A stretch of DNA of 6,836 nucleotides, from NCBI GenBank assembly GCA_946481065.1, contig CAMLMA010000094.1, positions 1 to 6,836 on the forward strand. The letters are read 5' to 3'. Below, one piece after another: positions 1 to 6,409 of this stretch. Source of the stretch: an uncultured Nitrosomonadales bacterium. Its GTDB lineage: Bacteria > Pseudomonadota > Gammaproteobacteria > Burkholderiales > Methylophilaceae. The position numbers and the translations under genes were made by a program. The stretch's first letter is position 1. Every line of letters starts with the position of its first letter. The notes below the pieces were generated by a model. It saw only the letters and a program-made list of their open reading frames with translations, searched no databases and was not told the DNA's origin.

Positions 1-493
1 CCACGGCCAGTTCTTCCGACACCATGAGCAATACGTCCGGCACGCCCAGCGCATCCGGCTTTTGCGTGTCGGCCAGGCGTCGCTCGATGTAGCGCACGGT
101 CTCATAGCCGAAGTAGCCTGCCAGGCCGCCGGTGAAGCGTGGCAAGCCTGCCTGTGCTGGCGGCGTCTTGAACCGCCGCTGGTACGCCTGGACGAAATCC
201 AGTGGGTTGGTGTCGGCCTCAGACTCGACGACTGTACCCTCACGGATGACTTGCACGTGCCGGCCTCGCGCTTCGATGCGCGTCCTGGCCGGTAAACCGA
301 TGATGGAATATCGCCCGAAACGCTCCCCGCCCTGCACCGATTCCAGCAGATAGGAATAAGGTCGGTTGGCGAGCTTGAGGTAAAGCGAGAGTGGCGTGTC
401 GAGGTCGGCGAAGGTTTCGACGACGAGCGGAATACGATTGTAGCCGTCGCGCGCGAGGCTATCGAAATCCTGTTGGTTGATCGTTTGCAGCAT
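1..493 (-). CDS. trpE: Anthranilate synthase component I, N-terminal part (partial)
   Basis: The enzyme makes anthranilate from chorismate with ammonia or glutamine (with TrpG), the first committed step of tryptophan synthesis in the cytosol. About 164 codons are visible; the gene runs off the left edge, so the chorismate-binding catalytic domain is outside the window. The visible part is the regulatory N-terminal domain: it begins [10 protein letters not shown], has LLES at residues 49-52 (the motif that binds feedback-inhibiting Trp in the family), then [11 protein letters not shown] at about 56-66, and the [10 protein letters not shown] segment at about 122-131 that is typical of TrpE. The ATG at 493-491 is preceded by AGGGA about seven bases upstream. 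The gene lies downstream of rpe on the same strand and behind a Trp-codon leader ORF with strong secondary structure (see 498-596), so end-product control by both allostery and leader-ribosome sensing is likely. Identity is secure; the downstream trp genes are not visible. Confidence 0.95.
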
Positions 494-497
494 GAGA

Positions 498-596
498 ATT
501 CCCTAAAGTCGATGGTTGGCGATACCCGGCGATGCCGGGCCTGTGGCTAAACTAGAGCCACCATCGCCAACTGTTGCGACTGATCGGGGAATCCAT
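498..596 (-). promoter_or_regulatory. trpE leader / attenuator-like RNA with nested inverted repeats
   Basis: In the minus-strand transcript, GUUGGCGAU (571-563, covering Trp codon 10 and the first base of codon 12) can pair perfectly with AUCGCCAAC (523-515). Inside this outer helix two further hairpins fit: GUGGCU (561-556) with AGCCAC (548-543) around a 7-base loop, and CCCGGC (539-534) with GCCGGG (530-525) around a 3-base loop. Together they give a compact three-way junction. Competing pairings exist: GGCGAU of the Trp-codon arm also matches the AUCGCC copy at 533-528, and CGAUGGU (566-560) matches ACCAUCG (516-510). GGGAAU (503-498), which includes the trpE Shine-Dalgarno, can pair with AUUCCC (592-587) in leader codons 2-4. 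No uridine run follows any hairpin, so a classical intrinsic terminator is not visible. Ribosome-sensed regulation of trpE is a strong inference; the exact mechanism is not resolved. Confidence 0.7.
552..596 (-). CDS. trpL: trp operon leader peptide (14 codons, three Trp)
   Basis: This short ORF reads MDSPISRNSWRWWL and stops at TAG (554-552). Three of its last five codons are UGG: codon 10 (569-567), codon 12 (563-561) and codon 13 (560-558). It lies between rpe and trpE, starts 10 bases after the rpe stop and ends 58 bases before the trpE start. In known Trp leaders the peptide itself has no function; ribosome stalling at its Trp codons senses charged tRNA-Trp and changes the fold of the downstream RNA. 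Here the Trp codons lie inside one arm of an inverted repeat, as that model requires. The Shine-Dalgarno is poor: the nearest AGG is only one base from the ATG, so initiation may depend on coupling to rpe termination. The frame is also open upstream through rpe (to 869), so the start at 596 is chosen from position and length. It is not a shadow of a real gene, because it extends past the rpe end into non-coding leader. Confidence 0.85.
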   Translation of the reverse strand: MDSPISRNSWRWWL

Positions 597-606
597 GCCT
601 GCGGGC

Positions 607-1305
607 TTAAACGGTCGCCAAGGCAGCGCGCATCTCGGCGACGACGCTGTTGTAGCGATTGGGGTCGTTGTCGTTACCCTTGCCGAAGATGGCGGAGCCG
701 GCGACAAAGGTATCGGCACCTGCGCGAGCGATCTCGGCGATGTTCTGCGGATTGACGCCGCCGTCGATCTCAAGCCAGATCTCGCGACCGGTCTTCTCGG
801 TGTAAGCGTCGATCTTGGCACGGGCATGGCGCAACTTATCCAGCGTGCCCGGGATGAACTTCTGGCCACCGAAACCCGGGTTGACCGACATCAGCAGCAC
901 CATGTCGACCTTGTCCATGACGTAATCGAGGTAGTCGAGCGGCGTCGCCGGGTTGAACACCAGGCCGGACTTGCAGCCATGTTCACGCACCAGGGACAGG
1001 CTGCGGTCGATGTGGTCGGACGCTTCCGGGTGGAAAGTGATGATATTGGCACCGGCCTTGGCGAAATCCGGGATGATACGGTCGACCGGCTTCACCATCA
1101 GGTGTACGTCGATGATCGCATCGGTCACCGGACGGATCGCTTCACATACCAGTGGGCCGATGGTCAGGTTCGGAACGTAATGGTTGTCCATCACGTCAAA
1201 GTGGACGATATCGGTGCCGGAGGTGATGACATCGGTGATCTCCTGACCCAGCTTGGCGAAGTTGGCGGAGAGGATACTCGGGGCGATTCGGAATTGTTTA
1301 GCCAT
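607..1305 (-). CDS. rpe: Ribulose-phosphate 3-epimerase
   Basis: This cytosolic TIM-barrel enzyme interconverts D-ribulose 5-phosphate and D-xylulose 5-phosphate in the pentose phosphate pathway (and in the Calvin cycle where present). The 232-residue product matches the usual family length of about 220-230. Metal and catalytic residues are visible: H35 and D37 in [13 protein letters not shown]68 in DVHLMV, D181 in EIDGGV. The phosphate-binding parts SVNPGFGGQ (140-148) and VAGSAIFG (201-208) are also present. The frame is open to 1353, but the start at 1305 ([14 protein letters not shown]) matches the family N-terminus, and a -10-like box at 1346-1341 would lie within the longer version. No strong Shine-Dalgarno is seen. 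The gene is divergent from hemA. It is followed directly by trpL and trpE, with no gph (phosphoglycolate phosphatase) in between, although gph often sits there in related bacteria. Confidence 0.97.
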
Positions 1306-4813: not shown

Positions 4814-5377
4814 TCAGTGCAGCCGACGACGTCCTGGCGGGCTCGGCATGGTGATGGGGAGATCGTCGCTACCATGCGGCGCCTGGCTGGCAGACAACAT
4901 GTTGGCAGGGGCACGGAACAGACGATCGACCAGGGTCAACACTTCGTTCACCGCCTGCGGATTGAACTGTCGGGCCAGCAGATCCTCGATATCGGCGAGC
5001 ATTTCGCGCCGCTGCGCCTCAAGGATCGCCGCCGGCGTGGGGCCGACGAACAGCAGCTGGAATTCATCGCGGCCGTCTTCGTGATACGTGCTGATCTCGA
5101 TCGGCGCGGCATTCTCGACCAGCGGCCCCAGCGCATGCATGGCAGCCTCCAGTGTCCCGACGAAATGCGGCCCTGCCTCCAGCGTGCAGCAGATATCGAG
5201 CGTCCAGTTCCGGTCATCGAAGTGGAATCCAGGCTGGTCCGGCTCCAGGCTTTTTATCGCGTTCAGCTGATCGAGTTCGAGATCATCGAGCAGTGGGCGC
5301 AACGCATGTTCCACCTGCCGCCGGCTGACGCCTTCCACCAGTTCCAGATAGCCATGCACATGGATTTCAGTGCGCAC
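4814..5377 (-). CDS. Conserved-looking protein of unknown function (about 187 aa)
   Basis: I do not recognise the family. With the GTG start at 5377 the product is about 187 residues, acidic through the middle, with no signal peptide or membrane helix. It begins RTEIHVHGYLEL, includes a DDLELDQLN stretch (31-39), WTLDICCTLEAGPHF (58-72), PIEISTYHEDGRDEFQLLFVG (92-112) and a helical segment (about 115-155), then a low-complexity tail rich in S, P and R. The alternating beta and helix pattern suggests a small alpha/beta cytosolic protein. The frame allows an ATG at 5407, but that ATG is the end of a TATAAT box (5411-5406), whereas GAAGGA (5388-5383) sits five bases before the GTG, so the GTG is preferred. 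The gene is convergent with prmC and follows the EamA permease gene on the same strand with its own apparent promoter, so it is probably a separate unit. The clean long frame and good initiation signals make it a real gene. Confidence 0.75.
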   Translation of the reverse strand: MRTEIHVHGYLELVEGVSRRQVEHALRPLLDDLELDQLNAIKSLEPDQPGFHFDDRNWTLDICCTLEAGPHFVGTLEAAMHALGPLVENAAPIEISTYHEDGRDEFQLLFVGPTPAAILEAQRREMLADIEDLLARQFNPQAVNEVLTLVDRLFRAPANMLSASQAPHGSDDLPITMPSPPGRRRLH

Positions 5378-5405
5378 AAGATTCCTTCGTTGAGATGAGG
5401 CGCTC

Positions 5406-5411
5406 ATTATA
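5406..5411 (-). promoter_or_regulatory. Consensus -10 box for the unknown gene
   Basis: The minus strand reads TATAAT, a perfect sigma-70 -10, about 28 bases before the proposed GTG start. Transcription would begin near 5399, leaving a leader of about 20 bases that contains the GAAGGA Shine-Dalgarno. No convincing -35 hexamer is found at 16-18 bases upstream, so an activator may be needed. The same bases include the alternative ATG at 5407. Confidence 0.5.
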
Positions 5412-5494: not shown

Positions 5495-6409
5495 TCAGGG
5501 CTGCGCTGGCGTCTGTTTTCTGAGACTGATCATCAACACCCCCGCCAGCACCAGCAGCGACCCCAGCATCTGCACGGCCGACATCGCCTCGCCCAGGAAC
5601 ACGTAAGCCAGGTAGATGGTCGAGACCGGCCCGATGGAACCGATGATCGAGGTCTGCATCGAGCCGATGCGCCGGATCGCGGCTGCCAGCACGAACGCCG
5701 GCATGACGGTCGAGAACAGCGCCATGGCGATGCTCAACCAGTAGACCCGCGCGGGTTGCGCGAGATCGGATAGCGCGTTGGTCAGCGCGAATTGCAAGAG
5801 GGCGGCGACGCAAGCGACCGTCATGGCATAGGCGGTGAAGCGCGTCCCGCCGATACGGGCGATGGTATGCCCGGCACCGATGAGATAGACGGCATAGGCC
5901 AGGGCGCTGGCGAATACCAGCGCCGACCCCAGCAGCAGGCCTGGTTGCTGCATCTGCATATCATGCATGTAGGCGAAAGCGATACCGACGTAACTCAGCA
6001 CCAGCGCAGCGATGACGCGCTTACTGATCCTGTGGCGGAACCATAGCGCCGAGATCAGTACCACCATGGTTGGATACAGGAACAGGATCAGGCGCTCGAG
6101 ACCGGCACTGATGTATTGCAAGCCAAGGAAATCCAGGAAGCTCGCCAGGTAGTATCCCGTGAAGCCGAAGACCCCCACGGCCCACCAGTCACGCCGCGTC
6201 ATGGCCGCATGCTGTTGATGGCGGTTGGCGAGCCACGCCGCCAGCAGGAAGAACGGCAGGGAGAACGCCATGCGCAGCGCCAGTAGCGTGATGGCATCCA
6301 CATGGTCGATATAGGCGAGCTTGACCAGTACCGCCTTGGCGGAAAAGCCGATCGCGGCGATGAAGGCAAAGAAGACGCCAGTCATTTTCTGACGTGGGGA
6401 GAACACCAT
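5495..6409 (-). CDS. EamA/DMT-family inner-membrane permease
   Basis: The product has 304 residues, the normal size of a two-repeat drug/metabolite transporter with ten membrane helices. Predicted helices lie at about 11-30, 39-61, 75-97, 101-123, 131-148, 156-178, 189-209, 221-245, 252-273 and 277-296, and the two EamA repeats are about 11-148 and 157-296. The segment LERLILFLYPT (104-114) at the fourth helix and GPVSTIYLAYVFLGE (260-274) near the end are typical of the family. Members export or import amino acids, metabolites or drugs; the substrate cannot be told from sequence. The ATG at 6409 has AGGG eight bases upstream. The gene starts 41 bases after the end of the hexapeptide-repeat gene and is probably co-transcribed with it. 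The short basic C-terminus (LRKQTPAQP) is expected to be cytoplasmic. Confidence 0.9.
   Translation of the reverse strand: MVFSPRQKMTGVFFAFIAAIGFSAKAVLVKLAYIDHVDAITLLALRMAFSLPFFLLAAWLANRHQQHAAMTRRDWWAVGVFGFTGYYLASFLDFLGLQYISAGLERLILFLYPTMVVLISALWFRHRISKRVIAALVLSYVGIAFAYMHDMQMQQPGLLLGSALVFASALAYAVYLIGAGHTIARIGGTRFTAYAMTVACVAALLQFALTNALSDLAQPARVYWLSIAMALFSTVMPAFVLAAAIRRIGSMQTSIIGSIGPVSTIYLAYVFLGEAMSAVQMLGSLLVLAGVLMISLRKQTPAQP

What the first reader, a model, noticed from the sequence alone, without database searches (positions are those of the whole stretch)
552..596. Unlabelled tryptophan-rich leader peptide (S-W-R-W-W-L-stop) between rpe and trpE
A 14-codon ORF with three UGG codons among its last five stands exactly where a trp leader peptide should be and would be missed by gene callers with a length cut-off. 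UGG is one codon in 64, so three in five next to trpE is very unlikely by chance. It implies ribosome-sensed control of trpE by charged tRNA-Trp.
Basis: partly seen in the sequence, partly recalled or inferred. Interest (0 to 1): 0.7.

Follow-up and report, generated by a model that had tools for sequence, protein, structure and literature searches.

The report
Tryptophan leader that locks trpE start
A tiny tryptophan-rich reading frame in front of a tryptophan-making gene is complementary to that gene's start signal, so translation of the tiny frame probably decides whether the gene is read; this looks like a bacterial tryptophan switch that works on translation instead of by stopping transcription as in E. 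coli.

Summary
The leader ORF is real: minus strand 596..552, MDSPISRNSWRWWL, 10 nt after the rpe stop and 58 nt before trpE. Trp-codon leaders precede trpE in 129 of 147 further loci of the family (124 by script, 5 degenerate ones by hand) and in 46 of 79 loci sampled across the order (3.7 expected). The mechanism does not look like E. coli's: the window has no U-tract terminator and no Rfam match. Instead the leader's start codon and first codons pair with trpE's Shine-Dalgarno and start codon. These arms co-vary between genomes: own pairs -17.0, swapped -10.8 kcal/mol, 0 of 100,000 permutations, peaking at the RBS; 28 independent clusters repeat it. Leaders have on average no Shine-Dalgarno, and the upstream stop is usually within 30 nt, suggesting reinitiation. 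In equilibrium folding a single ribosome stalled at the Trp codons does not open the trpE RBS; a ribosome on the leader start does. I infer translational attenuation, perhaps driven by ribosome queueing. Pairing is shown by sequence only; regulation is inferred. New variant of a known kind.

The parts
552..596 (-). Leader ORF trpL-like, MDSPISRNSWRWWL, ATG 596-594, stop TAG 554-552
   Evidence: same peptide in L081
558..569 (-). Sensor: UGG CGA UGG UGG (Trp codons 10, 12, 13 with an Arg CGA codon between the first two)
   Evidence: UGGCGAUGGUGG invariant in an alignment of 15 leaders chosen for W-R-W-W; CGA in 88 of 89 W-R-W
577..602 (-). 5' arm of closing stem P1 (602-577, with internal loops): leader start codon and codons 2-7, the anti-RBS arm
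   Evidence: MFE fold, z -5.34, 0 of 200 shuffles as stable; helix coordinates checked; co-variation of the arm with the RBS
487..511 (-). 3' arm of P1: trpE Shine-Dalgarno AGGGAA (504-499), spacer and start codon AUG (493-491); leader CAUG 597-594 pairs with CAUG 494-491
563..571 (-). 5' arm of P2, GUUGGCGAU, containing Trp codon 10 and the first base of codon 12
515..523 (-). 3' arm of P2, AUCGCCAAC
   Evidence: across 49 clusters trpE positions near -30 pair with leader positions near +28 with mean probability about 0.5
543..561 (-). Hairpin P3 (GUGGCU 561-556 with AGCCAC 548-543) around Trp codon 13 and the leader stop
524..540 (-). G+C-rich hairpin P4 (GCCCGGC 540-534 with GCCGGGU 530-524), no U-tract after it; sequence differs in L081 but a hairpin is predicted there too
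   Evidence: 0 terminator-like sites in 400-1450
2..493 (-). trpE (N-terminal 164 residues; runs off the window)
607..1305 (-). rpe, upstream gene; its stop ends 10 nt before the leader ATG; presumed source of reinitiating ribosomes (inference)

Best explanation
This is an intra-operonic translational attenuator of trpE that senses tryptophanyl-tRNA. The leader ORF is itself the 5' arm of a long hairpin: its start codon and first codons pair with the trpE Shine-Dalgarno and start codon, and its first Trp codon pairs with sequence just upstream. Because the leader has no good Shine-Dalgarno it is probably fed by ribosomes that terminate at rpe (another upstream gene in some relatives) and reinitiate. 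With ample Trp the ribosome clears the leader quickly, the hairpin closes, both start codons are buried and trpE is off. With scarce Trp-tRNA a ribosome stalls on UGG, followers queue over the leader start, the 5' arm cannot pair and the trpE RBS stays open. Shown by sequence: leader, its conservation, complementarity and co-variation of leader start and trpE RBS, absence of a terminator in the window. Inferred: the Trp response, reinitiation, queueing. The confidence given is for control of trpE translation by an RBS lock sensing Trp; for the queue step alone it is about 0.5.
For: Window fold -58.4 kcal/mol, z -5.34, closing leader start on trpE SD and AUG. Leader arm with RBS: own -17.0 vs swapped -10.8 kcal/mol over 49 clusters, z -12.8, 0 of 100,000 permutations; 31 Methylophilaceae-side and 18 other clusters each 0 of 100,000; within-genome sliding peaks at leader start x trpE RBS. 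Order-wide sample: 35 clusters, -20.9 vs -14.2, 0 of 100,000; with nothing dropped or hand-changed, 37 clusters, -20.3 vs -14.8, 0 of 100,000; restricted to 28 clusters unlike the first set, -21.7 vs -14.6, 0 of 100,000. Register is start codon opposite start codon on average. RBS less accessible than with a shuffled leader: 0.309 vs 0.445, 40 of 49 clusters, p 1.5e-7. E. coli control is the opposite: terminator found, leader x RBS -5.6 against background -11.3, RBS paired with leader 0.00. Leader SD -0.80 kcal/mol vs -1.95 random and -4.53 trpE; upstream stop within -30..+5 of the ATG in 35 of 46 and 24 of 31 in the order-wide sample. RBS unpaired 0.31 free, 0.32-0.36 with one stalled ribosome, 0.53 with an initiating ribosome, 0.54 with both.
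Against: No expression, probing or profiling data. SD pairing with the leader exceeds 0.5 in only 30 of 49 clusters and AUG-to-AUG pairing in 21 of 49. A single stalled ribosome does not open the RBS at equilibrium, and adding the stalled ribosome to an initiating one changes little (p 0.12), so the queue step is a model. 11 of 49 leaders have an SD energy of -3 or lower, so not every leader lacks an SD. Within clusters P1 is mostly invariant, with few double changes, and alignment-based folding of the two largest clusters (21 and 20 members) gave no leader x RBS pairs. 33 of 79 order-wide loci have no Trp-rich ORF by my rule. Footprints and energies are simplified and pseudoknots were not modelled.
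Confidence: 0.8

Rival explanations
1. Classical ribosome-mediated transcription attenuation as in E. coli trp: a stalled ribosome favours an antiterminator over an intrinsic terminator.
For: Trp-codon leader before trpE; G+C-rich hairpin P4 in the window; L025 has a G+C hairpin followed by six U; L308 has a 5-bp G+C stem with six U and several others have weak terminator-like sites.
Against: No terminator-like site in the window. Terminator-like in 6 of 49 clusters vs 3.0 expected from shuffles, 12 of 157 loci, 6 of 35 clusters in the order-wide sample (no shuffle control there). No Rfam match in the window or in 19 relatives, while E. coli matches RF00513. Does not explain the co-variation with the RBS.
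Confidence: 0.06
2. Rho-dependent version: with ample Trp the closed RBS leaves the RNA untranslated and Rho terminates inside trpE; stalling prevents this. It could act together with RBS occlusion.
For: A Trp sensor without a U-tract terminator; a link of this kind is described for E. coli topAI, passages read (PMC12121999).
Against: On its own it does not need the conserved pairing with the trpE RBS. Rho sites were not tested.
Confidence: 0.2
3. Same RBS lock, but a single stalled ribosome acts kinetically during transcription: it holds P2 and upper P1 open long enough for a 30S subunit to load on trpE before the lower stem zips; no queue needed.
For: With the stalled footprint forced unpaired the window's best fold drops from -61.3 to -30.4 kcal/mol; cotranscriptional order favours early decisions (established knowledge).
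Against: Equilibrium accessibility of the RBS hardly changes with a single stall (0.306 to 0.320-0.362).
Confidence: 0.35
4. The leader is only a translational coupling bridge from the upstream gene to trpE and does not sense Trp.
For: Leaders lie close to upstream stops and on average lack an SD.
Against: Trp codons persist while other codons drift; 46 of 79 vs 3.7 expected Trp-rich ORFs.
Confidence: 0.04

Closest known systems
E. coli trp leader / Rfam RF00513 Trp_leader (ribosome-mediated transcription attenuation)
   Same: 14-residue leader peptide before trpE with Trp codons from codon 10 on (E. coli 10 and 11; here 10, 12, 13); ribosome as Trp-tRNA sensor
   Different: Here no U-tract terminator and no Rfam match; leader ORF pairs with the trpE RBS (E. 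coli: 0.00); located inside an rpe-trpE gene string, without a good SD
ermC/cat-type translational attenuation by leader peptides (recalled); E. coli toiL-topAI uORF (PMC12121999, passages read)
   Same: Leader translation controls base-pairing around the downstream ribosome-binding site
   Different: Those respond to ribosome-targeting drugs; here Trp codons; here the anti-RBS arm is the leader start region, i.e. upstream of the stall site
Actinobacterial LEU element upstream of leuA (PMC1262725, passages read)
   Same: Leader codons of the cognate amino acid take part in a base stem with the downstream SD; no terminator
   Different: In LEU the Leu-codon run itself pairs with the SD, with a pseudoknot, and that paper argues against classical attenuation; here the start region pairs with SD/AUG and the Trp codons pair upstream of the SD; different phylum
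Leader peptides without obvious terminators before cys operons in Mycobacterium (PMC1262725, passages read); experimental Cys uORF work (recalled)
   Same: Amino-acid codon leader with no intrinsic terminator
   Different: Other amino acid and taxa; start-to-start pairing not reported in the passages read

Membership tests
Ribosome-mediated transcription attenuator (E. coli trp type, RF00513) | Leader ORF with clustered Trp codons before trpE | tested here: met
Ribosome-mediated transcription attenuator (E. coli trp type, RF00513) | Intrinsic terminator with U-tract between leader and trpE | tested here: not met
   0 in window; 6 of 49 clusters vs 3.0 expected; E. coli control detected
Ribosome-mediated transcription attenuator (E. 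coli trp type, RF00513) | Match to the Rfam covariance model | tested here: not met
   window none at E<=1; 19 relatives none at the gathering score, E. coli 93.1 bits
Translational attenuation by leader peptide | Downstream SD/start codon sequestered by a structure involving the leader | tested here: met
   by computation only; above 0.5 for the SD in 30 of 49 clusters
Translational attenuation by leader peptide | Ribosome stalled in the leader releases the downstream RBS | tested here: inconclusive
   single stall 0.32-0.36, initiating ribosome 0.53, both 0.54, free 0.31
Translational attenuation by leader peptide | Regulated change in translation of the downstream gene by the cognate signal | not testable with these tools
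   needs reporter or ribosome profiling
LEU element | Amino-acid codon run itself pairs with the SD of the downstream gene, with pseudoknot | tested here: not met
   here leader positions about 0 to +15 pair with SD/AUG; Trp codons mostly pair before -14; pseudoknots not modelled
T-box riboswitch or other curated riboswitch | Match to a curated RNA family | tested here: not met
   no match at E<=1

The most novel reading that the evidence does not exclude
Across much of the betaproteobacterial order trpE is controlled by a translational lock in which the leader ORF is the complement of the trpE start region, laid start codon against start codon, has little Shine-Dalgarno of its own and lives on ribosomes handed over from the upstream gene. 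Trp shortage is read as a ribosome traffic jam: the queue standing on the leader's start, not the stalled ribosome's own footprint, keeps trpE open.
Probability: 0.4. Interest if true: 0.78.

Novelty: new variant of a known kind. Interest (0 to 1): 0.6.

Why it matters
The trp leader is the textbook case of transcription attenuation. If this reading holds, a large bacterial group uses a Trp-codon leader to gate translation of trpE from inside an operon, with a geometry in which a ribosome on the leader start and repression of trpE exclude each other by base pairing. That makes a clean prediction (queue versus footprint) that reporters and disome profiling can separate, and it suggests why terminator-based searches and Rfam would miss such leaders.

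Tried and rejected
Transcription attenuation by an intrinsic terminator: rejected as main mechanism. L025 has the clearest terminator of the 81 loci scanned; by my reading of its sequence its leader frame starts with ATA.

An overlapping ORF from the AUG created by the CGA codon (cgAUGg): rejected, its length and end are scattered across 36 clusters. Pairing of UGGCGAUGG with an exact downstream complement as the reason for the CGA: weak only (4.62 vs 4.07 nt); left unexplained.

Alignment-based covariation (RNAalifold on MAFFT clusters): of little use; P1 is nearly invariant within clusters and the two largest clusters gave no leader x RBS pairs; the arms do not align between clusters. The swap test was used instead; because swapped pairs differ in base composition, a within-genome sliding control was added.

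Simple model in which one stalled ribosome opens the RBS: not supported by equilibrium folding.

Negative control group from other gammaproteobacteria: a class-wide search with E. coli TrpE gave 1 match in 229 genomes, so E. coli is the only outside control.

Rows dropped or changed: one search left out L070 as spurious and added L010 and L022 by hand (51 leaders); one search added L094, L125, L135, L186, L208 by hand and removed identical regions (180 to 157); one search dropped L264, L271, L305 as spurious and took the second candidate for L232, L265, L304 (43 leaders, 35 clusters); reran it with all 46 first candidates unchanged, and with the 10 of 43 leaders resembling the first set removed: result kept. 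One search also reran the first set without hand-added loci, L151 and the L055 outlier (43 clusters, -16.7 vs -11.0, 0 of 100,000). L257 was cut by a contig end and not used (79 of 80). One search left out L094, L151, L186 (46 of 49). In L151 my shortest-ATG rule probably truncates the leader. Of 173 TrpE matches in the family search 147 were fetched; of 146 genomes with matches in the order search I chose 80, leaving out the Methylophilaceae already seen, so that sample is not strictly random.

Papers: Vitreschak 2004 is not held. [quoted passage not shown] PMC2965389 says Merino and Yanofsky could detect translational attenuators; that work was not read. Any of these may list betaproteobacterial trpE leaders, so I do not claim that nobody has predicted them.

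Full report
Observation. The rpe stop codon (609-607) ends 10 nt before its ATG; trpE starts at 493, 58 nt after its stop. Gene names rest on NCBIfam and Pfam; the trpE fragment passes the Pfam cut-off but, being a fragment, not the NCBIfam ones. In dinucleotide shuffles of the 200 nt before trpE, an 8-35-codon ORF with three TGG in five codons occurs in 1 of 5000.

Conservation. The 23 best named loci (L001-L023, mostly titled Methylophilaceae) all carry a leader, 21 found by script and 2 by hand; of the next 57 (L024-L080, other betaproteobacteria) 27 do by my rule. A search of 187 genomes of the family of L001 gave 173 TrpE matches, of which 147 loci were fetched; some are the same genomes as L001-L023. 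The script found 124 leaders; 5 more were found by hand (one with TTG start, others with lost or changed Trp codons). After removal of identical regions 106 of these add to the set. The 18 without are L142, the contig-end case L168, and all 16 loci L212-L227. Those 16 have a TrpE only 53-58% identical to the window's and come from genomes of 0.8-1.3 Mb, probably the streamlined branch of the family (inference). Four of the 16 contain other Trp-containing small frames (MRLWWVILL in L212 and L214, MGNQLNLIKWIWQ in L219 and L220) that lie where the upstream gene should be and that I did not count. Two other small genomes (0.8 and 0.7 Mb; L101, L150) do carry the leader. In a sample across the order (160 genomes drawn evenly by the tool, 146 with TrpE, 80 chosen and fetched by me with Methylophilaceae left out, 79 usable) 46 of 79 have a Trp-rich ORF against 3.7 expected from shuffles. 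In an alignment of 15 leaders chosen for W-R-W-W, UGGCGAUGGUGG is invariant while the codons before it drift. Window and L081 differ by one synonymous base in the ORF and by more between it and trpE.

Structure. The window RNA folds to -58.4 kcal/mol (shuffles -38.6, sd 3.7; z -5.34; 0 of 200 as stable) into a closed multi-branch structure (coordinates recomputed). P1 pairs leader start and first codons with trpE SD and AUG, CAUG against CAUG; P2 pairs the first Trp codon with AUCGCCAAC; P3 and P4 are internal hairpins. No U-tract follows P4, and the terminator scan finds none. Rfam gives nothing at E<=1; 19 relatives give nothing at gathering scores, while E. coli gives RF00513 with 93.1 bits.

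Co-variation. P1 sequences are rewritten between genera but stay complementary. I tested this without alignment: the leader arm (-6..+30) of each genome against the trpE RBS (-30..+6) of its own or another genome. Over 157 unique loci in 49 clusters, own pairs average -17.0 and swapped pairs -10.8 kcal/mol; 0 of 100,000 permutations reach the observed value (z -12.8). Own RBS is the best of all 49 for 15 clusters and in the best 10% for 31. The 31 Methylophilaceae-side and 18 other clusters each give 0 of 100,000. Sliding either window inside the same genome gives a peak at leader start and trpE RBS, with about -8.5 to -12 away from it. Without hand-added loci, L151 and the outlier L055, 43 clusters give -16.7 against -11.0, 0 of 100,000. 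The order-wide sample repeats this: 35 clusters, -20.9 against -14.2, 0 of 100,000, same peak. Because 10 of its 43 leaders resemble the first set, I removed them: 28 clusters, -21.7 against -14.6, 0 of 100,000; and with all 46 first candidates and no hand choices, 37 clusters, -20.3 against -14.8, 0 of 100,000. Averaged pair probabilities lie on one diagonal: trpE +2 with leader about 0, -10 with +9, -20 with +21, -30 with +28, i.e. start codon against start codon. The trpE RBS is less accessible than with a shuffled leader in 40 of 49 clusters (0.309 vs 0.445, p 1.5e-7). E. coli as the only outside control: terminator detected, leader x RBS -5.6 with background -11.3, RBS paired with leader 0.00.

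Against. Pairing of the SD with the leader exceeds 0.5 in 30 of 49 clusters only, and AUG-to-AUG in 21 of 49. In L040, L041 and L076 (Azonexus/Dechloromonas) the RBS pairs with the leader ORF with probability 0.00-0.15; by eye their sequence just around the leader ATG resembles a partner of the trpE SD region in a shifted register, untested. RNAalifold on MAFFT clusters shows few compensatory pairs inside P1, and the two largest clusters gave no leader x RBS pairs. Terminator-like sites are somewhat above expectation (6 of 49 vs 3.0) and occur in 6 of 35 clusters of the order-wide sample, L308 being the best of them; a minority of these loci may therefore use termination.

How the leader is translated. 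Its Shine-Dalgarno energy averages -0.80 kcal/mol, weaker than random upstream sequence (-1.95), while that of trpE is -4.53; at a cut of -3, 11 of 49 leaders and 37 of 49 trpE genes have one. The window's leader has -0.6. The stop of the upstream long frame lies within -30..+5 of the leader ATG in 35 of 46 clusters where one was found, and 24 of 31 in the order-wide sample. Reinitiation after the upstream gene is therefore the likely supply (inference). The promoter scan found no promoter-like site between rpe and the leader; its one hit lies inside trpE.

How it switches. I folded the leader with ribosome footprints forced unpaired, 46 of the 49 clusters. Mean RBS unpaired probability: free 0.306, terminating 0.317, stalled with first Trp of the cluster in the A site 0.362, with last Trp 0.320, initiating ribosome alone 0.526, initiating plus stalled 0.538. 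The anti-RBS arm lies behind the stalled ribosome, under the footprint of a ribosome at the leader start. So the simplest equilibrium reading is that stalling works through queueing: followers standing on the leader start hold the 5' arm. The last Trp codon is at codon 11 or later in 155 of 157 loci and 42 of 43 in the order-wide sample, which leaves room for a second ribosome; but E. coli trpL has Trp at 10 and 11 too, so this does not discriminate. A kinetic single-ribosome model remains open. Confidence: leader and Trp sensing about 0.95, control of translation initiation about 0.8, queueing about 0.5.

Literature. Ten searches returned no title or abstract start that I could recognise as describing a betaproteobacterial trpE leader that sequesters the RBS. 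Passages only were read in PMC1262725, PMC2965389 (its terminator-based search does not detect translational attenuators), PMC8632094, PMC12121999, PMC4833913 and PMC11955535. Older comparative papers that could contain it were not read.

Verdict. New variant of a known kind.

Noticed in passing
window 558-569 (-) and leaders of the fetched loci: The Arg codon between two Trp codons is CGA in 88 of 89 W-R-W motifs (28 of 32 in the order-wide sample), although CGA is 9 of 131 Arg codons in the window's genes and Arg codons elsewhere in the leaders are mixed. Not explained; slow CGA decoding as part of the sensor is one idea.
   Followed up: partly
L055 and L239, leader start and trpE RBS: The two arms are long near-perfect inverted repeats (duplex -56.0, and -48.3 kcal/mol) encoding MNRKGAKAQR and MNHRDTEAQR; they look like a dispersed repeat (recalled, not searched) recruited as the RBS lock.
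   Followed up: no
L212-L227: The 16 family loci with the most distant TrpE (53-58%), from genomes of 0.8-1.3 Mb, lack the Trp leader; in several trpE starts within a few bases of the upstream stop.
   Followed up: partly
L025 upstream of trpE: The leader frame starts with ATA instead of ATG (read by eye) and is followed by a G+C hairpin with six U, the clearest terminator of the 81 loci scanned.
   Followed up: no
window 5495-6409 (-): EamA-family transporter with a below-cut-off match to the aromatic amino acid exporter YddG (45 bits, cut-off 300), about 5 kb from trpE.
   Followed up: no
window 4814-5407 (-): 197-residue protein of the DUF6806 family (Pfam PF20621), no NCBIfam match.
   Followed up: no
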